64,000 nucleotides of DNA from an uncultured Oscillibacter sp. (GTDB lineage: Bacteria > Bacillota > Clostridia > Oscillospirales > Oscillospiraceae). The notes under the pieces were generated by a model that did no database searches, was not told the origin of the DNA, and saw nothing but the letters and a program-made list of their open reading frames with translations. Below are positions 5,754 to 42,235 of the stretch, one piece after another. The stretch spans positions 16,708 through 80,707 of the forward strand of contig CATNDJ010000002.1 of the NCBI GenBank assembly GCA_950097265.1, read 5' to 3'. The translations under genes were made by a program, and so were the position numbers. The first letter of the stretch is position 1. Each line of letters starts with the position of its first letter.

Positions 5754-7741
5754 GAGATGTCGGCCATTTCAAGGTATTTATACCCATTCTCCGCAATGTG
5801 GTCCTTCCGCCCCTGGAGGTTGTCTCCCAGGAGGAGGTCGAAGACCTGGGCCGTCCGCTCCACGTCCTCCGGCATGACCCGGATGAGCCGCCGGGTCTCC
5901 GGGTTCATGGTGGTCAGCCACATCATGTCCGGGTCGTTCTCGCCCAGGCCCTTGGAGCGGTCGATTTTTACTTTCTTCCCCTCCAGGTCCTTCACAATGT
6001 CGTTTTTCTCCTTGTCCGAGTAGGCAAACCAAGTCTTCTCCCCGCAGTTGATTTCAAACAGCGGGGTCTCGGCGATATACACGTACCCCTCCCGGATCAG
6101 GGTGGGGGTCAGGCGGTAGAGCATGGTCAGCACCAGCGTCCGGATCTGGAAGCCGTCCACGTCGCCGTCGGTGCAGATGACCACCTTGCTCCAGCGGAGG
6201 TTCCCCAGGTCGAAGGAGGACACGTCCTTGGCGTGTTTGTTTGTAACCTCCACGCCGCAGCCCAGGACCTTGATGAGGTCCGTGATGATCTCGCTCTTGA
6301 AGATCCGGGCGTAGTCCGCCTTCAGGCAGTTCAGGATCTTCCCCCGGATGGGCATGATGCCCTGATACTCCGAGTCCCGGGCCAGCTTCACGCTGCCAAG
6401 GGCCGAGTCGCCCTCCACGATGTAGATTTCCCGGCGGTTCACGTCCTTCGTCCGGCAGTCCACGAACTTCTGCACCCGGTTGGCGATGTCCACGCTGCCG
6501 GAGAGCTTTTTCTTGATGCTCAGCCGGGCCTCCTCCGCCTTCTCCCGGCTGCGCTTGTTCAGCAGCACCTGCTCCGCGATCTTCTCCGCGTCAAAGTGGT
6601 TTTCAATAAAGTAGATCTCCAGGTTGGACCGGAGAAACTCCGTCATGGCCTCCTGGACGAAGCGGTTGGTGATGGCCTTTTTCGTCTGGTTTTCATAGGA
6701 GGTCTGGGTGGAGAAGTTGCTGGTGACCAAGATCAGGCAGTCCTCCACGTCCGCCCAGGTGACCTTGCTCTCGTTCTTCTGGTACTTCCCCTGCTCCCGC
6801 AGGTACTTGTCCACGGCGGAGACGAAGGCGGAGCGGCTGGCCTTCTCCGGGCTTCCCCCGTGCTCCAGCCAGCTGGAGTTGTGGTAGTGCTCCACCACGT
6901 TCACCCGGTTGGAAAAGCAGAAGGCCGCGCTGAGCTTCACCTTGTACTCCGGCTTATCCTCCCGGTCCCGGCCCTTCTTCTCCGCCTGCCAGAAGGCCGG
7001 GGAGGTCAGGGCCGTCTCTCCCGCCAGCTCCGCCACATAGTCGGCGATGCCGTTCTCGTAGACGAACTCCGTCTCCTCGAAATTCCCCGGCTTCGTCTCA
7101 TTTTTAAAGTGGAAGGTGAGCCCGGCGTTGACCACCGCCTGGCGCTTGCACACGCCCTCGAAATACTCCGGCGGCACGGCGATGTCCGTGAACACGTCCA
7201 GGTCCGGGAGCCAGCGGGTCCGGGTGCCGGTCTTCTTGGCCTGGGATTTGGGCAGGGGCGTTTTCTGGAGCTCCCCCACAATCTCCCCCCGCTCGAAGCG
7301 CAGGCGGTACTCGAAGCCGTCCCGCCAGACGGTCACGTCCATATACCGGGAGGCGTACTGGGTGGCGCAGGAGCCCAGGCCGTTGAGCCCCAGGGAGAAC
7401 TCGTAGTTGTCCCCGGAGACGTTGTCGTACTTGCCCCCGGCGTAGAGCTCGCAGAACACCAGCTCCCAGTTGTACTTCTGCTCCTTCTCGTTCCAGTCCA
7501 CGGGGCAGCCCCGGCCCGCGTCCTCCACCTCCACGCTGCGGTCCAGAAAGCGGGTGACGGTGATGGCCTTCCCGTGGCCCTCCCGGGCCTCGTCGATGGA
7601 GTTGGATAAAATCTCGAACACCGCGTGCTCGCAGCCGTCCAGGCCGTCGGAGCCGAAAATGACCCCGGGGCGCTTCCGCACCCGGTCCGCGCCCTTTAAG
7701 GCGGAAATGCTGTCGTTGCCGTAATCCTGTTTCTTCGCCAT
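5750..7741 (-). CDS. parE: DNA topoisomerase IV subunit B (ParE-like ATPase subunit)
   Basis: A 663-residue type IIA topoisomerase ATPase subunit. The GHKL ATP-binding domain shows EILSNSIDEAREG (about residues 44-56) and a glycine-rich lid region SLGLNGLGSCATQ. The transducer follows, then the TOPRIM domain with [11 protein letters not shown] (about 440-450) and ICTDGDVDGFQIRTL (about 520-534), carrying the acidic metal ligands. It differs clearly from the GyrB at 45.4 kb ([11 protein letters not shown]). Start ATG at 7739-7741 with GGAGG site. It is first in a minus-strand run parE-RAYT-membrane protein-parC, transcribed from the 7.74-8.14 kb gap. Confidence 0.9.
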   Translation of the reverse strand: MAKKQDYGNDSISALKGADRVRKRPGVIFGSDGLDGCEHAVFEILSNSIDEAREGHGKAITVTRFLDRSVEVEDAGRGCPVDWNEKEQKYNWELVFCELYAGGKYDNVSGDNYEFSLGLNGLGSCATQYASRYMDVTVWRDGFEYRLRFERGEIVGELQKTPLPKSQAKKTGTRTRWLPDLDVFTDIAVPPEYFEGVCKRQAVVNAGLTFHFKNETKPGNFEETEFVYENGIADYVAELAGETALTSPAFWQAEKKGRDREDKPEYKVKLSAAFCFSNRVNVVEHYHNSSWLEHGGSPEKASRSAFVSAVDKYLREQGKYQKNESKVTWADVEDCLILVTSNFSTQTSYENQTKKAITNRFVQEAMTEFLRSNLEIYFIENHFDAEKIAEQVLLNKRSREKAEEARLSIKKKLSGSVDIANRVQKFVDCRTKDVNRREIYIVEGDSALGSVKLARDSEYQGIMPIRGKILNCLKADYARIFKSEIITDLIKVLGCGVEVTNKHAKDVSSFDLGNLRWSKVVICTDGDVDGFQIRTLVLTMLYRLTPTLIREGYVYIAETPLFEINCGEKTWFAYSDKEKNDIVKDLEGKKVKIDRSKGLGENDPDMMWLTTMNPETRRLIRVMPEDVERTAQVFDLLLGDNLQGRKDHIAENGYKYLEMADIS

Positions 7742-13730: not shown

Positions 13731-14573
13731 TTGAAAAATTTCCTGAAACAGCACGGGCTCTGGGTGCTCTTCGCCGCCGCCGTCCTCTCGGTGGCCCTGG
13801 CGGTGATGTCGGTGCTCAGCGCCAGTTCCTCCCCGCTGGTGAACCTGACGGGGATCCTGGTCTCGCCCTTCCGGGCGGGCTACACGGTAGTTGCCAACTG
13901 GTTCAACGACTTGCAGAATTACTATAAGGACACCACGGACCTCCAGGCGGAAAACGCCGCCCTGCGCCAGCAGATCGCCCAGATGGAAGAGACCATCCGC
14001 CAGGCCAAGGCCGACGTGGAGGAAAACGCCAAGCTCCGGGAGCTGCTGGACCTGACCCGGCAGCGCCGGGACCTGACGGACTTCGAGGCCTGCATGATTA
14101 CGGAACACGAGGTGACCAACTGGACCTCCTCCCTGACGCTGAACAAGGGGACCTCCCTGGGCGTCGAGGTGGGGGACTGCGTCACCGACGAGTGCGGCAA
14201 CCTGGTGGGCGTGATCGACCGGGCGGGGACCAACTGGTCCACCGTGCTGACCCTGGTGGACACGGACACCTCCCTGGGCGCCCAGGTCTTCCGCACCAAG
14301 GAACTGGGCATCGCCCAGGGGGACTTCTCCCTGATGCGGGAGAACCGGCTGCGGCTGGACTACCTGCCGGCGGACTGCGCCCTGCTGCCCGGGGACGTGG
14401 TGGTAACCTCCGGCTTAAACGGCTACTACCCCTCCGGGCTGGTCATCGGCTATGTGGAGGAGGTCCAGCTGGACGACTCCGGGGCGTCCTCCTACGCCAT
14501 TTTGGCCCCCGAGGCGGACTTTGACGCCCTGACGGAAGTCTTTGTCATCAAATCCTTTGAAATCGTCACCTGA
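13731..14573 (+). CDS. mreC: Rod shape-determining protein MreC
   Basis: About 280 residues. A short cytoplasmic N-terminus is followed by a single membrane helix (LWVLFAAAVLSVALAVMSVL), a coiled coil (roughly 60-105) and a double beta-barrel periplasmic-type domain containing LSGLNGYYPSGLVIGYV-like sequence near the end. I chose the TTG at 13731 because AGGTGA lies five bases upstream; a GTG at 13722 is the alternative. MreC scaffolds the elongasome. No mreB is adjacent; mreD and PBP2 follow after an inserted palindromic repeat. Confidence 0.88.
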   Translation: MKNFLKQHGLWVLFAAAVLSVALAVMSVLSASSSPLVNLTGILVSPFRAGYTVVANWFNDLQNYYKDTTDLQAENAALRQQIAQMEETIRQAKADVEENAKLRELLDLTRQRRDLTDFEACMITEHEVTNWTSSLTLNKGTSLGVEVGDCVTDECGNLVGVIDRAGTNWSTVLTLVDTDTSLGAQVFRTKELGIAQGDFSLMRENRLRLDYLPADCALLPGDVVVTSGLNGYYPSGLVIGYVEEVQLDDSGASSYAILAPEADFDALTEVFVIKSFEIVT

Positions 14574-14575
14574 GC

Positions 14576-14681
14576 CGTCGCAAAGTCCGCTTAGCTCCGT
14601 TCCCGCCTTACGGCGAGAACTCCGCCCGCTCCCTTGCTCCGCCTCTCCCTCGACAAACGCTACGCTGGTTTGTCTCGGGGC
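14576..14681. repeat. Palindromic module copy G (free-standing) between mreC and mreD
   Basis: It begins CGTCGCAAAGTCCGC and contains two hairpins. The first has outer arms GTTC/GAAC around CGCC TTAC GGCG. The second has arms CTCGACAAAC and GTTTGTCTCG around GCTACGCTG. It aligns with modules nested at 29.4-29.5 kb, 32.65-32.77 kb and 40.18-40.29 kb, with compensatory changes in both stems. It occupies nearly all of the gap before mreD. Confidence 0.7.
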
Positions 14682-14718
14682 ACGGGTATATTTTCCCTTT
14701 TCCGAAAGGATTCTCCTA

Positions 14719-29385: not shown

Positions 29386-29797
29386 TGTACTCGCCCGTTC
29401 GGGCGGGGAGATTGGCAACCAGCAATGGCTGGTCCAATGCACCCCCCATTTCGTCGGAAGAAACTCCGCCCGCTCCGCCCCCGCCTAACGGCGAGGTCTT
29501 CGCTCTGCTCCGTTCCTTCCTCCTCTCCCCACCGCGCGGGGCGCGGCGGGGGCCCCTGTTTTGCGAAAAGAGACTGCGTCCGCAGACGCGTGTCGGAGGC
29601 CAACCGCCGCAAAGCGGCGGCTCTTAGGCCGGAGACGAATGCGCCGTGCACGGTGGAAGAGAGAAAACGGGGGCGCGAAAGAAGTACCGACTGTTTGGTA
29701 CGCAAGTCTTCTGCCCACGGCGTGGTGCAAGCGGGAGTTTTGGAGGTTGATGCAAGGCCCGCTCTCCTCTCCTCGCTGCCGCTAACCCGGCGCTTGC
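29386..29797 (-). repeat. Large modular palindromic element, copy B, with two nested insertions
   Basis: In minus orientation relative to copy A: it begins TGTACTCGCCCGTTCGGGCG and ends CCGCTAACCCGGCGC. One nested module of about 105 bp (from CGTCGGAAGAAACTCCGC near 29452 to GGGGGCCCC near 29555) interrupts the right arm of the main hairpin. A second, 63 bp insertion (about 29574-29636) carries palindromes GCCGCCGC TTT GCGGCGG-like and CGTCTGCGGACG. It lies directly after the hisS stop codon. Confidence 0.75.
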
Positions 29798-32630: not shown

Positions 32631-32981
32631 TGATGGCTGGTTCATTGCACCCCCCATGTCGTCGGAAGAAATTCCGCTCTGTTCCGTCCCCGCCTGACGG
32701 CGAGGACTCCACCCGCTCCATTCCTTCCTCCTCTCCCCACCGCGCGGGGCGCGGCGGGGGCCCCTGGTTTCCTTCCAGAAGGAAACGAGAAAACGGGCCG
32801 TGCACGGTCCAAAAGAGAAAAGGAAGTATGCCCCCTCGGGGGGATCAAAGACGGAGGGACGCGCAGGGCGTGCCTCCGTTTTTTACGCAGGTCTTTGGGC
32901 CGCGGCGTGGTGCAAGCGGGGGTTTTGGCAGTCGATGCATGGACTATCCGTCTATCCTCGCTGCCGCTAACCTGGCGCTGG
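32591..32981 (-). repeat. Large modular palindromic element, copy D, with nested module
   Basis: In minus orientation, beginning TTGTACTCGCCCTGACGGGC and ending CCGCTAACCTGGCGCTG. A nested module (from CGTCGGAAGAAATTCCGCTC near 32659 to GGGGGCCCC near 32763) splits the main hairpin. A further GC-rich tail hairpin (GGAGGGACGCGCAGGGCGTG, about 32851) replaces the corresponding region of E. Together with copy E it brackets the HTH gene in inverted orientation. Confidence 0.75.
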
Positions 32982-38936: not shown

Positions 38937-40325
38937 TCAGTACAGCGCCGCGGACACCAGGGCCCCCGCCTCCGTCAGCTCCAAAAGGCCCAGCTCCAGC
39001 TTCCAGCGGAGCACCCGGAGGCAGGCCGCGTCCACGGTCTCTTCCGCCAGGGTCCCGTCCTTCACGGCCTGAATGACCCGGGGGATCTGGGTGCGGTAGT
39101 CCGTGGTCACCACCAGGTCGTTCCCCGCCTGGAGGGACATCACCGCCACGTTTCCGTCCGCGGCGTAGGCCGACACGGCCTTCATGGCCAAATCGTCGGT
39201 CATCGCCACGCCGTCAAAGCCCAGGTCCTCCCGGAGGATACGGTGGACCTCCGGGGAGAGGGACGCGGGCAGGTCCGGGTCCATGCAGTTCACAATATTG
39301 TGGCTCACCAGCACGGCGGGCCGGAGCCGGCGGAGTTCACCGGAGGGCCAAACCGTCTCCTCCACAGCGATGCCCGCCTGAAAGGGAAGAAAATCCTGCT
39401 CCAGGAATGTCTCCATAGACCGGTCATCCACGGCTATGCCGGTGTGAGTATCTTTGTTGTTCCCATAGCCGGGGAAGTGCTTCAAGACGCTGCCCAGGCC
39501 ATAGAAGGACTGGGCCTCCGTCACTCGGGCGGTATAATCCGCAGTCTCCTCCGCGTCCATGCCGGTGGTCCGATCATAGATGAAGTCGCCGGAGTTGATG
39601 GACACGTCCGCCACCGGAGCCAGGTTCACATTGAAACCCAAGGTCTTCAAAAGGATGGACTTCTCCCGGGTCTCTCGGAGCAGGGCGTCCAAGCCCTCCT
39701 TCCAGAGCTTGCCGGGGCTGGAGAACTTTTTGCTCCGCAGCTTGGGGTTGGAGCTGACCCGGACCACGGACCCGCCCTCCTCGTCCACGCCGATGAGCAG
39801 GGGCACGCCGGTATCGTAACGCACCGCCTGAGCCTGCCAGGAAGCAATCGTCTGGATCAAATCATTGGCCGTTTTCTCCTGGGTGTCCCGGCCGAAGAGG
39901 AGGTAGCCCCCCAGGTGATAGGTGGTCACGTCCTCCAGAGCGTTCTCCGCCGGGACCCGGACGAAGAAGAGCTGGCCGGTTTTCTCCTCCAGGGTCAGGC
40001 CTTCCAAAAGGGACTCCAGGGCGGCCTCCTCCGCGTCTCCGGGTTCTTCCGGCTCCTCAGGCTCCGGCGGCGTTTCCGGAGTTTCCGCCTGGGGCGGGTC
40101 CGGGACCTCCGGCGCGTCCTGCACCATCTCCCCGCCGCAGGCGGTGAGGAGCAGGGCCAAAAGCAGGGCCGCGCACATCGTCGGAAGAAATTCCGCTCTG
40201 CTCCGTTTCCGGCTTCCGCCGAAAACTCCGCCCGCTCCATTCCTTCCTCCTCTCCCCACTCGAACCGCTTCGCTGGGTTCGAGCGGGGGCCCCATATAGG
40301 CGATTGGCTTTCTGCTTTCTCTCAT
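38937..40325 (-). CDS. GH3 family beta-N-acetylhexosaminidase lipoprotein with in-frame repeat insertion
   Basis: 462 residues. ATG 40323-40325 overlaps nadE's stop (ATGA). Residues 1-11 (MRESRKPIAYM) precede 38 residues encoded by palindromic module F (12-49), then MCAALLLALLLTAC (50-63) supplies a hydrophobic helix and lipobox LTAC. Without the insert the two parts form a canonical lipoprotein signal. After a Glu/Pro-rich linker the GH3 domain shows IGVDEEGGSVVRV, KHFPGYGNNKDTHTG (catalytic Asp-His loop of the NagZ type) and GVAMTDDLAMKA with nucleophile Asp. It probably trims muropeptides or wall glycans at the cell surface. An internal start at Met50 (40178) is possible but lacks a ribosome site. 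Confidence 0.85.
   Translation of the reverse strand: MRESRKPIAYMGPPLEPSEAVRVGRGGRNGAGGVFGGSRKRSRAEFLPTMCAALLLALLLTACGGEMVQDAPEVPDPPQAETPETPPEPEEPEEPGDAEEAALESLLEGLTLEEKTGQLFFVRVPAENALEDVTTYHLGGYLLFGRDTQEKTANDLIQTIASWQAQAVRYDTGVPLLIGVDEEGGSVVRVSSNPKLRSKKFSSPGKLWKEGLDALLRETREKSILLKTLGFNVNLAPVADVSINSGDFIYDRTTGMDAEETADYTARVTEAQSFYGLGSVLKHFPGYGNNKDTHTGIAVDDRSMETFLEQDFLPFQAGIAVEETVWPSGELRRLRPAVLVSHNIVNCMDPDLPASLSPEVHRILREDLGFDGVAMTDDLAMKAVSAYAADGNVAVMSLQAGNDLVVTTDYRTQIPRVIQAVKDGTLAEETVDAACLRVLRWKLELGLLELTEAGALVSAALY
40179..40292. repeat. Palindromic module copy F, inserted in frame in the GH3 gene
   Basis: 114 bp (38 codons) from CGTCGGAAGAAATTCCGCTC to GCGGGGGCCCC. Hairpin 1 is GTTTCCGGC TTCC GCCGAAAAC. 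Hairpin 2 has arms CTCGAACC and GGGTTCGAG around GCTTCGCT. The same module occurs at 14576 and nested at about 29452 and 32659. It is free of stop codons in the GH3 frame. Confidence 0.78.
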
Positions 40326-42235
40326 TGCAGCGCCTCCACCTCGGAAAGCCACAAACTGGCTTGAGCGTCCGACGGCATCCGCCAATCCCCCCGGGGAGAC
40401 AGGGAGACGGTGCCGATCTTGGGCCCGTCGGGGACGCAGTCCCGCTTGAACTGCTGGGAGAAGAAGCGGCGGTAGAAGGACTTCAGCCACTTCAAAATGA
40501 CCTCCCGGCCATACTTCCGCCCCAGGGCGTGCTGGGCCAGGCGGAAGACCTTCCCCGGGGCGAAGCCCCAGCGGATCACATAGTACAGGAAGAAGTCGTG
40601 GAGCTCGTAGGGGCCCACCAGGTCCTCGGTCCGCTGGGAAATCTCCCCCTTCACGGCGGGAAGCAGTTCCGGGGAGACGGGGGTGTCCAGAATGTCCTCC
40701 AGCACGTCGTGAAGCTCCGGTTCCTCCCCGTCCCGGGAGAGGTAGCCCACCAGGTGCCGGACCAGGGTCTTGGGGATGGAGGCGTTGACCCCGTACATGC
40801 TCATGTGGTCCCCGTTGTAGGTGCACCAGCCCAGGGCCAGCTCGCTCAAATCCCCGGTGCCGATGACCAGGCCCCCGCTGGCGTTGGCGACGTCCATGAG
40901 CACCTGGGTCCGCTCCCGGGCCTGGGCGTTCTCATAGGTGACGGAGTGATCCTCCGGGTCGTGGCCGATGTCCCGGAAGTGGCTCCGAACGGACTGGGAA
41001 ATATCCACGGTCCGCAGCGTGGCCCCCATCTGCTCCGCCAGGATGACCGCGTTGTTTCTCGTCCGGTCCGTGGTGCCGAAGCAGGGCATGGTGACGGCGA
41101 TAATGTCCGACAGGGGCCGGTCCAGCAGCTTCATGGCAAGGCCGGTGATCAGCACCGCCAGGGTGGAGTCCAGCCCGCCGGAGAGGCCCACCACGGCGGT
41201 CTTCGCCCCGGTGTGCTCCAGGCGCTGCTTCAGCCCTAAGGAGGCCAGCAGCAGGATTTCCCGGCACCGCTCGTCCCGGTCCTCCTTCCCCTCGGGGACG
41301 AAGGGCATGGGAGAGACGTAACGGGTCAGCTTGGTTTTGCCCTCCGTCAGGGTGAAGGTCTCCTCGCAGCCCCCATTCCCGGACCCCGCCCCCAGGGACT
41401 GGGTCCGGCGGCGCTCGTAGTTAAGGCGCTGCACGTCGATTTCCGAGACCAGCAGGCCGCCGTCGAACCGGCGTTCCGCCAGCAGGGTCCCGTTCTCCGC
41501 GATGAGCTGGTGGGCTCCGAAGACCAGGTCGGCGGTGGACTCCCCCGCCCCGGCGCTGGAATAGACATAGCCGCAGAGGAGCTTGGCGCTCTGGGTGGTG
41601 ACCAGCTGGCGGCGGTAGGCGTCCTTCCCAACCAGATCGTTGCTGGCGGAGAGGTTGCCGATGATCACCGCCCCGTCCCTGGCCATCCCCAGGGAGGGAG
41701 AGTCCGGGGACCAGAGGTCCTCGCAGATCTCAAAGCCCAGCGCCAGCCCGGGGATATTCTCGCACCGGAAGACCTGCCCCGCCCCGAAGGTGACGAACTC
41801 CTGTCCCAGCAGGGGGAGGCTCTCCGGCTCCGCCGGGGCGGGGGCGAACCAGCGCTTCTCGTAAAACTCGCCGTAATTGGGGAGATGAGTCTTGGGGACT
41901 GCGCCCAGAATCTTTCCTTTTTGTATTACTATAGCGCAGTTATACAGTTCGTTGTGAACCCGCAGGGGCATGCCCACCGCCGTCACCACTTCCAGGTTCC
42001 GCGTCGCGGCCAGGACGGTTTTCAGGGCCTCCTCCGCCTCCCGGAGCAGGGCTTCCTGATAAAAGAGGTCCCCGCAGGTGTAGCCCGTCAGGCCCAGCTC
42101 CGGCAGGACCAGGACCTTGACCCCCGCTTTTTCCGCGGAGCGCATGAGCTGAAAGGTCTGCTCGGCGTTATAGGCGCAGTCCGCCAGGCGGAGCTTGGGC
42201 GCGCCGCAGGCAACGGAAATAAATCCGTCTCTCAT
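40322..42235 (-). CDS. nadE: Glutamine-dependent NAD+ synthetase
   Basis: 637 residues with the two-domain architecture of glutamine-dependent NadE. The N-terminal nitrilase domain has Glu in LPELGLTG (about 43-50), Lys in VPKTHLPNYGEFYEKRW and Cys in GFEICEDLW (about 170). The C-terminal ATP pyrophosphatase domain carries the P-loop GLSGGLDSTLAVL (about 352-364) and TMPCFGTTDRTRNNA. It amidates nicotinate adenine dinucleotide to NAD using glutamine ammonia. ATG 42233-42235 has AGGAGGGA upstream. It heads the operon nadE-GH3-alaX-DUF6881. Confidence 0.93.
   Translation of the reverse strand: MRDGFISVACGAPKLRLADCAYNAEQTFQLMRSAEKAGVKVLVLPELGLTGYTCGDLFYQEALLREAEEALKTVLAATRNLEVVTAVGMPLRVHNELYNCAIVIQKGKILGAVPKTHLPNYGEFYEKRWFAPAPAEPESLPLLGQEFVTFGAGQVFRCENIPGLALGFEICEDLWSPDSPSLGMARDGAVIIGNLSASNDLVGKDAYRRQLVTTQSAKLLCGYVYSSAGAGESTADLVFGAHQLIAENGTLLAERRFDGGLLVSEIDVQRLNYERRRTQSLGAGSGNGGCEETFTLTEGKTKLTRYVSPMPFVPEGKEDRDERCREILLLASLGLKQRLEHTGAKTAVVGLSGGLDSTLAVLITGLAMKLLDRPLSDIIAVTMPCFGTTDRTRNNAVILAEQMGATLRTVDISQSVRSHFRDIGHDPEDHSVTYENAQARERTQVLMDVANASGGLVIGTGDLSELALGWCTYNGDHMSMYGVNASIPKTLVRHLVGYLSRDGEEPELHDVLEDILDTPVSPELLPAVKGEISQRTEDLVGPYELHDFFLYYVIRWGFAPGKVFRLAQHALGRKYGREVILKWLKSFYRRFFSQQFKRDCVPDGPKIGTVSLSPRGDWRMPSDAQASLWLSEVEALQ

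What the first reader, a model, noticed from the sequence alone, without database searches (positions are those of the whole stretch)
40179..40292. Palindromic repeat module inserted in frame into a lipoprotein signal peptide
The GH3 gene starts by ATGA overlap with nadE and encodes MRESRKPIAYM, then 38 residues from repeat module F, then MCAALLLALLLTAC. Excising exactly 114 bp restores a textbook lipoprotein signal (basic n-region, hydrophobic core, lipobox LTAC). The insertion length is a multiple of three and the frame is open. This recalls Rickettsia palindromic elements, which insert into genes without destroying them. The insert may lengthen the n-region, impair export, or be tolerated because an internal Met50 is used.
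Basis: partly seen in the sequence, partly recalled or inferred. Interest (0 to 1): 0.85.

Follow-up and report, generated by a model that had tools for sequence, protein, structure and literature searches.

The report
Palindromic repeat fused into enzyme gene
A short folded DNA repeat that is scattered through a group of gut bacteria sits behind one gene; in this genome a small deletion appears to have joined it in frame to the next gene, so it now lengthens that protein's export signal, and some related copies are followed by a second copy of their neighbour gene's end.

Summary
The repeat, its coordinates and the open frame are real, but it did not land inside a signal peptide. It is one copy of a structured ~115-nt element (E) found in 73 of 86 genomes of the genus. 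In two relatives (G047, G002) E sits at the same place, after the nadE stop, followed by a second copy (B) of the nadE 3' end (A) and a normal GH3 lipoprotein start. The window lacks 71 bp relative to G047 (B plus the GH3 start and basic n-region), which fuses E in frame to the hydrophobic core. The 114-bp excision that "restores" a signal is thus a coincidence. The Rickettsia analogy holds for the family: E lies in frame inside MetK, a FliB-like and a DUF6017 protein elsewhere. The surprise is the architecture of 18 of 125 copies: A, E, then B starting at E's end; often with a 10-15 nt spacer complementary to the A boundary. Outside nadE, 38 of 40 A/B codon differences are synonymous, as if both ends had evolved as coding sequence; nadE itself goes the other way and some B copies there are broken. 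I propose a mobile palindromic element; how it moves is open.

The parts
40179..40293 (-). Element E (115 nt): hairpin H1, stem P2 closing hairpin H2, 3' tail GACG
   Evidence: 94% identical to E at the same locus in G047, the best of the 134 other fetched copies; E at the same locus in G002 is 88%, no closer than copies from other places such as L149 and L144
40299..40308 (-). X': GCCAATCGCC, complementary (9 of 10) to X in nadE
   Evidence: 9 or 10 of 10 at the same place in 11 of 29 nadE loci
40381..40390 (-). X: GGGGATTGGC in nadE, spanning the left edge (T|GG) of the segment duplicated in relatives
40319..40383 (-). A: nadE 3' end (limits by analogy with G047), duplicated as B behind E in G047, G002, G097, G100, G073, G016 and G087; B is absent here
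40177..40178 (-). Scar: 71 bp present in G047 (second nadE end B plus GH3 start and n-region) are missing here
   Evidence: pairwise alignment
38937..40325 (-). GH3 lipoprotein gene, 462 aa, N-terminus now spacer plus E
   Evidence: Pfam PF00933 at residues 111-440
40137..40178 (-). MCAALLLALLLTAC: hydrophobic core and lipobox, where similarity to GH3 relatives begins

Best explanation
E is a short, structured, mobile-type palindromic repeat of this genus. An ancestor acquired it directly behind the nadE stop codon, together with X' and a second copy (B) of the last ~65 bp of nadE; in that state a small relay ORF runs from the ATGA at the nadE stop through E and B to the ATGA at the GH3 start, which may keep the two genes translationally coupled (inferred). 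In the window's lineage a 71-bp deletion removed B plus the GH3 start and basic n-region, so translation coupled to nadE now most likely starts at 40325 and reads through spacer and E into the lipoprotein core, giving a 49-residue stretch before it. Shown: E at the same junction in relatives, the duplication, the missing 71 bp, the open frame. Inferred: order of events, start codon used, continued export and lipidation, and that E is selfish rather than useful.
For: E with B at the same junction in G047 and G002; G000 E is 94% identical to G047 E, above the 133 other copies compared, those of its own genome included; 71-bp gap in the alignment; relay ORFs of 69 codons in G047 and G002 ending CAATGA at the GH3 start; plain ATGA junction in G005, G098, G104; E in 73 of 86 genus genomes, and by DNA search in 21 of 25 genomes of the genus looked at and 0 of 15 of other families; covariation; in-frame copies in FliB-like, MetK and DUF6017 proteins.
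Against: G051, G098 and G005 have nadE more similar to G000 (95, 93, 93%) than G047 and G002 (92%) yet lack E, so repeated loss or horizontal exchange must be assumed. E of G002 is no closer to that of G000 than copies from other loci. The 71-bp gap is clean against G047 but not against G002. No read, expression or lipidation data. The genomes are draft assemblies.
Confidence: 0.8

Rival explanations
1. Direct in-frame insertion of a 114-bp module into an existing GH3 signal peptide.
For: Excising 114 bp leaves an open frame with a basic stretch before the core; the family does lie in frame inside proteins elsewhere.
Against: E stands between nadE and GH3 in G047 and G002 with B and an intact GH3 start; MRESRKPIAYM corresponds to spacer in both and holds X'; none of the 29 GH3 relatives has it as n-region.
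Confidence: 0.05
2. How the duplication arises, ordinary version: E inserts by a target-primed or staggered-cut mechanism with one cut at T|GG and the other a variable distance on, giving long target duplications; recombination between strains, using E and the duplicated ends as homology, later mixes A and B from different lineages.
For: The base before the left edge is T in 9 of 11 genes, the base after it G in 10 of 11, both in 8 of 11, and the E tail joins B within 0-3 nt; duplication length varies, 25-130 bp; Ser AGT in A against TCC in B of G100 smc needs two lineages; tandem arrays in G097, G100 and G016; broken B copies at nadE of G097 and G087 fit a dispensable second copy.
Against: Does not explain the complementary X'. 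107 of 125 testable copies show no duplication adjoining E at the score used. No driver found: among 42 genomes at least 90% complete copy number rises with Y1 transposases (rho 0.42) and reverse transcriptases (0.41), but also with genome size (0.64); allowing for size leaves 0.28 and 0.00. Of 24 genomes with 20 or more copies, 6 have neither family; five of these six are 56-83% complete.
Confidence: 0.47
3. E is a useful 3'-UTR RNA (stability, termination or coupling) kept by selection rather than a mobile parasite.
For: Conserved covarying fold; X-X' pairing at 9 or 10 of 10 in 11 of 29 nadE loci, with two positions changed on both sides.
Against: Patchy presence between close relatives; copies inside proteins, in both orientations; very unequal copy numbers, 0 to 42 per genome, lower bounds because only 43 candidates per genome were scored.
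Confidence: 0.2
4. A-X'-E is removed from the RNA (a tiny intron-like unit) so that the gene body joins B.
For: X' spans both would-be exon ends; outside nadE both ends look coding.
Against: No Rfam intron match in 10 loci; 115 nt holds no known group I or II core (recalled); A already completes the gene; some B copies at nadE are broken.
Confidence: 0.04

Closest known systems
Rickettsia palindromic elements (RPE)
   Same: About 100-150 bp, palindromic, dispersed, found in frame inside unrelated protein genes
   Different: Oscillospiraceae-like hosts, so another phylum; several frames and both orientations; gene-end duplication and complementary spacer in part of the copies; sequence homology not tested
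PARCEL, palindromic amphipathic repeat coding sequence (PMC2996958, passages seen)
   Same: Palindromic DNA read as protein, spread between lineages, Firmicutes among them
   Different: PARCELs are tandem repeats inside mostly membrane or surface proteins; E copies lie singly or in arrays with gene ends and few are inside proteins; no sequence comparison made
CGTC-tagged REP repeats (PMC3733652, section 4 part 1 and passages seen)
   Same: CGTC (as GACG) next to one end in 112 of 130 copies; that paper too found no dedicated transposase; mosaics with other repeats
   Different: Those are single 8-9 bp stems with A/T first pairs, reported from five phyla without Firmicutes; E is a three-helix, 115-nt unit
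MITEs
   Same: Short, non-coding, dispersed, fold into hairpins
   Different: No terminal inverted repeats seen by eye in alignment A1; no parent transposase found
Integrative elements that carry a replacement gene end (recalled, e.g. prophage e14 in icd)
   Same: Gene end A, element, displaced end B; outside nadE the differences are mostly synonymous
   Different: E carries no gene and occurs behind many different genes

Membership tests
Rickettsia palindromic elements | Palindromic, ~100-150 bp, dispersed | tested here: met
   size from passages of PMC10969869
Rickettsia palindromic elements | In-frame insertion inside unrelated proteins | tested here: met
   FliB-like, MetK and DUF6017 clear; sortase and HTH protein weaker. 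130 distinct copies searched for spanning ORFs, but ORFs running past the fetched 900 bp were dropped by the script (the window's own GH3 among them), 18 were translated and 7 proteins scanned, chosen by eye
Rickettsia palindromic elements | Encodes one conserved peptide in a preferred frame | tested here: inconclusive
   Frame 2 in GH3, zinc finger, FliB-like and MetK; frame 1 sortase; frame 0 HTH; antisense in the DUF6017 protein
Rickettsia palindromic elements | Sequence homology to RPE families | not tested
   No RPE sequences were compared; Rfam gave no match to E
CGTC-tagged REP | Terminal CGTC | tested here: met
   GACG at the 3' end in 112 of 130 copies
CGTC-tagged REP | Stem of 8-9 bp with A/T in the first two positions next to the tag | tested here: not met
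   By eye on alignment A1 against the text
RAYT-driven REP (GTAG) | GTAG end and an associated Y1 transposase | tested here: not met
   End is GACG/CGTC. PF01797 in 36 of 86 genomes, none found in copy-rich G005, G006, G099, G107; a weak rise with copy number remains after genome size, rho 0.28 over 42 genomes
MITE | Terminal inverted repeats | tested here: not met
   By eye on alignment A1
MITE | Short fixed target duplication | tested here: inconclusive
   Long variable duplications at 18 of 125 copies; the FliB-like copy may have one of about 6 bp; most copies have no empty site compared
Group I or II intron | Conserved catalytic core | tested here: not met
   No Rfam intron match at E<=1 in 10 loci

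The most novel reading that the evidence does not exclude
The moving unit is not E alone but [gene end A - X' - E]: a minute guide-bearing homing element in which X' recognises the empty target T|GG inside a conserved gene's 3' end, E is the scaffold for an enzyme supplied in trans, and the carried end A keeps the host gene intact while the native end is displaced as B. Because X and A stay intact, the site can be entered again, which gives the tandem arrays.
Probability: 0.17. Interest if true: 0.88.

Novelty: new variant of a known kind. Interest (0 to 1): 0.6.

Why it matters
Protein-coding palindromes are known from Rickettsia and Wolbachia, and as PARCEL repeats in other microbes (passages). 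A family in gut bacteria with filled and empty sites across many species makes the spread of such elements testable. The combination of a gene-specific complementary spacer, a T|GG edge and two copies of the gene end matches no short repeat known to me and would, if the spacer is a guide, be a very small gene-sparing mobile system.

Tried and rejected
Group I/II intron or known RNA: no Rfam match to E. Reverse transcriptase as driver: its rise with copy number vanishes when genome size is allowed for; Y1 transposase: a weak rise remains, so it is not excluded. My first text said that neither tracks copy number; the check did not bear that out, and the odds of the ordinary insertion reading went from 0.45 to 0.47, of the intron reading from 0.05 to 0.04 and of guided homing from 0.20 to 0.17 with that and the nadE recount. 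Selection for an open frame in E: all six frames are about equally open. Neutral decay of B after an old duplication: not compatible with the synonymous excess outside nadE, but it fits nadE, where B has a stop codon in G097, a frameshift in G087 and no stop in place in G073 and G016. The first version of the codon count chose wrong frames for L140 and L157 and was replaced. The last lines failed with an error; the earlier part ran. Plasmid or phage carriage: no match in annotated phages or plasmids at E<=1e-5 with one copy as query, but two viral contigs hold a 28-base core pattern, one of them with a duplicated gene end. Papers: no description of this family turned up in searches (open-licence library only; listings seen); a paper with RPE definitions was not held, so RPE features rest on passages of PMC10969869 and on recall. 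Also seen: passages of PMC2694212, PMC3733652 (section 4 part 1) and PMC2996958.

Full report
What is in the sequence. On the - strand, nadE (40322-42235) ends in TGA that overlaps the ATG of the next ORF (38937-40325). That ORF reads MRESRKPIAYM, 38 residues from a repeat, then MCAALLLALLLTAC and a GH3 domain. The repeat occurs 15 times in the own genome by DNA search at E<=0.001, this copy included, and 26 times at E<=0.1 with a covariance model built from 19 copies. With that model 73 of 86 genomes of the genus have it, 0 to 42 matches each; only 43 candidates per genome were scored, with stricter filters, so the numbers are lower bounds. A DNA search found it in 21 of 25 genomes of the genus and 0 of 15 of other families. 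The best named nadE relative is an Oscillospiraceae MAG at 81% (a capped list); the genus itself is not named by the tools.

Structure. E has a hairpin H1, a stem P2 enclosing hairpin H2, and a GACG tail. On 19 copies 93.9% of 558 cells pair, 18 of 31 pairs show changes on both sides, and 0 of 500 shuffles reach the observed value on four of five measures (81 of 500 on the number of pair types). I drew the structure from these same rows, which favours it; slid versions fall to 44-56% paired. GACG lies at the 3' end in 112 of 130 copies.

The GH3 locus in relatives. In G047 and G002, E is at the same junction, but there the order is nadE end (A), stop, spacer, E, a second nadE end (B), then the GH3 start. 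G005, G098 and G104 have the plain ATGA junction; G051 has a different sequence there. E of G000 is 94% identical to E of G047, more than to any of the other 133 copies compared, those of its own genome included; E of G002 is 88%, level with copies from other loci such as L149 and L144. Aligned with G047, the window lacks 71 bp from behind the E tail to the GH3 core; against G002 the alignment is not clean. In G047 and G002 the ATG at the nadE stop opens a 69-codon ORF through E and B that ends CAATGA on the GH3 start. The loss of 71 bp puts E and the GH3 core in one frame. So the present fusion looks like a later deletion, not the insertion. The difficulty is that G051, G098 and G005 are nearer to G000 by nadE identity (95, 93, 93%) than G047 and G002 (92%) and lack E; recombination between the direct repeats A and B could remove E cleanly (inferred), and horizontal exchange is the alternative.

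Gene-end duplications elsewhere. Of 135 fetched copies 130 are distinct and 125 had enough flank. In 18 of 125 a direct repeat scoring 48-249 begins 0-3 nt after E and has its other copy ending 0-42 nt in front of E. Mismatched flank pairs (373) had a 99th percentile of 30 and a maximum of 61, above two of the 18 (L249, L240). One of the 18 (L224) repeats E's own tail rather than a gene end. The other 107 show no such repeat at that score. The hosts include smc, nadE, comM, rnhA, ilvC, an EF-G-like gene, a TelA-like gene and a phage portal gene (names recalled from the translations; no family search).

The left edge. Over 11 genes the base before the edge is T in 9 and the base after it G in 10; both in 8. 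A twelfth case (L028) was left out because its edge could not be placed. In smc only L266 shows the edge directly; the other loci have 1-3 changed bases there.

The complementary spacer. Directly in front of E several copies carry 10-15 nt complementary to the gene sequence across that edge (X'). In one search, nine of 21 duplicated loci had a match equalled by 0 of 200 control windows (L266, L247, L165, L257, L222, L161, L142, L254, L025; five of these are smc). L140 scored 9, but so did 25 of 200 controls. For L168 the spacer, and for L241 and L270 (tandem arrays) the edge, was not placed right by that script; L168 and L241 show X'. L237, L218, L157, L216, L249, L240, L019 and L028 show none. 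nadE was found in 74 of 86 genomes and the 30 best loci were fetched; one lacked the search motif. Of 29, 11 have X' at 9 or 10 of 10 at the same place, 76-79 nt on, and 18 have at most 8 of 10 at scattered places. Of the 11, G063 shows no E and G081 only a truncated one. Two positions change on both sides (C-G to T-A in G000 and G002; C-G to G-C in G097); G000, G002, G047, G081 and G087 each have one mismatch.

How the two ends differ. Over 21 duplicated loci in 10 genes, 48 codons differ between A and B: 39 synonymous, 9 not. Outside nadE it is 38 of 40; random single changes would be synonymous in 14-31%. Loci of one gene are not independent (8 of 21 are smc). nadE goes the other way: 1 of 8 synonymous, and the loci not counted there are no better: B has a stop codon in the last unit of G097, a frameshift in G087, amino acid changes and no stop in place in G073 and in the last unit of G016. 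L168 was also left out of the count; its two coding ends are identical. In G100 smc a serine is AGT in A and TCC in B, which points to two smc lineages, and the G073 nadE B reads KMNLWQAELETLE, like the end of G008 and the inner units of G100 but for the last residue. In G017 and G062 (smc 99% identical) A of G017 equals the empty G062 end except at the last codons, and B differs. Outside nadE simple decay of a redundant copy does not fit; exchange between strains, or transfer of A with E, does. At nadE, decay of B is visible.

In-frame copies. ORFs spanning E were sought in 130 copies; the script dropped ORFs that run past the fetched 900 bp, so this is a minimum. Eighteen were translated; six of these and GH3 were scanned, chosen by eye. 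The gene of G007 that I call FliB-like (name recalled; no Pfam family) is interrupted in frame by E while G042, G093, G043 and G107 are uninterrupted at 82-87% identity. MetK of G073 carries E between its N-terminal and central domains. A G048 protein has HTH_36 before and DUF6017 after an antisense E. A sortase (G064), an HTH protein (G051) and a DUF3268 zinc finger with E at its start (G000) are weaker: one side only is recognised. So the analogy with Rickettsia elements is fair for the family.

Mobility. Among 42 genomes at least 90% complete, copy number rises with genome size (rho 0.64), with PF01797 (0.42) and with PF00078 (0.41); with size allowed for, 0.28 and 0.00 remain. Of 24 genomes with at least 20 copies, 11 have no PF00078 match, 10 no PF01797 match and 6 neither (G001, G002, G005, G051, G082, G107); five of the six are 56-83% complete. 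No driver is identified and a Y1 enzyme is not excluded. One E copy had no match in annotated phages or plasmids. A 28-base core pattern hit two viral contigs; in one (L415) the ORFs on the two sides of E end in near-identical peptides, WLQANNALAQEIRG and WLQANNALAREIRG, so phages may carry the arrangement.

Judgement. The finding in hand is explained: old insertion behind nadE, later 71-bp deletion, in-frame fusion. The more interesting matter is the family: its T|GG edge, complementary spacer and paired gene ends. I favour a mobile element plus recombination between strains, and leave guided homing as an open, testable possibility.

Noticed in passing
window 14573-14684, 29452-29556, 32660-32764 (- strand): Three further E copies in the window; the last two are followed by ATGGGGGGTGC as in larger mosaics.
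   Followed up: partly
L360, L361, L363 (G017): E forms the two inverted ends of 0.8-0.9 kb mosaics bounded by CACCCCCCATTG and AATGGGGGGTGC-like boxes; G017 has many similar-scoring copies, several at contig ends.
   Followed up: partly
L010-L015 (own genome): An E variant ending in GAGCTGG lies against the 3' ends of tRNA-like genes and of the tmRNA gene, in opposite orientation; only L010 and L012 were checked against Rfam, the rest by eye.
   Followed up: partly
L285, L300, L301 (G097, G100, G016): Tandem arrays of nadE end plus E behind nadE, three or four gene ends in a row, as if the site had been entered more than once.
   Followed up: partly
L276 (G051) and L302 (G045): A different hairpin sequence (TTTCTTGAAAGAAA, then AAGAACTTTT) directly after the nadE stop in two species.
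   Followed up: no
L415, about 5900-6500: Viral contig with E between two copies of a gene end, beside a long tape-measure-like ORF (name recalled).
   Followed up: partly
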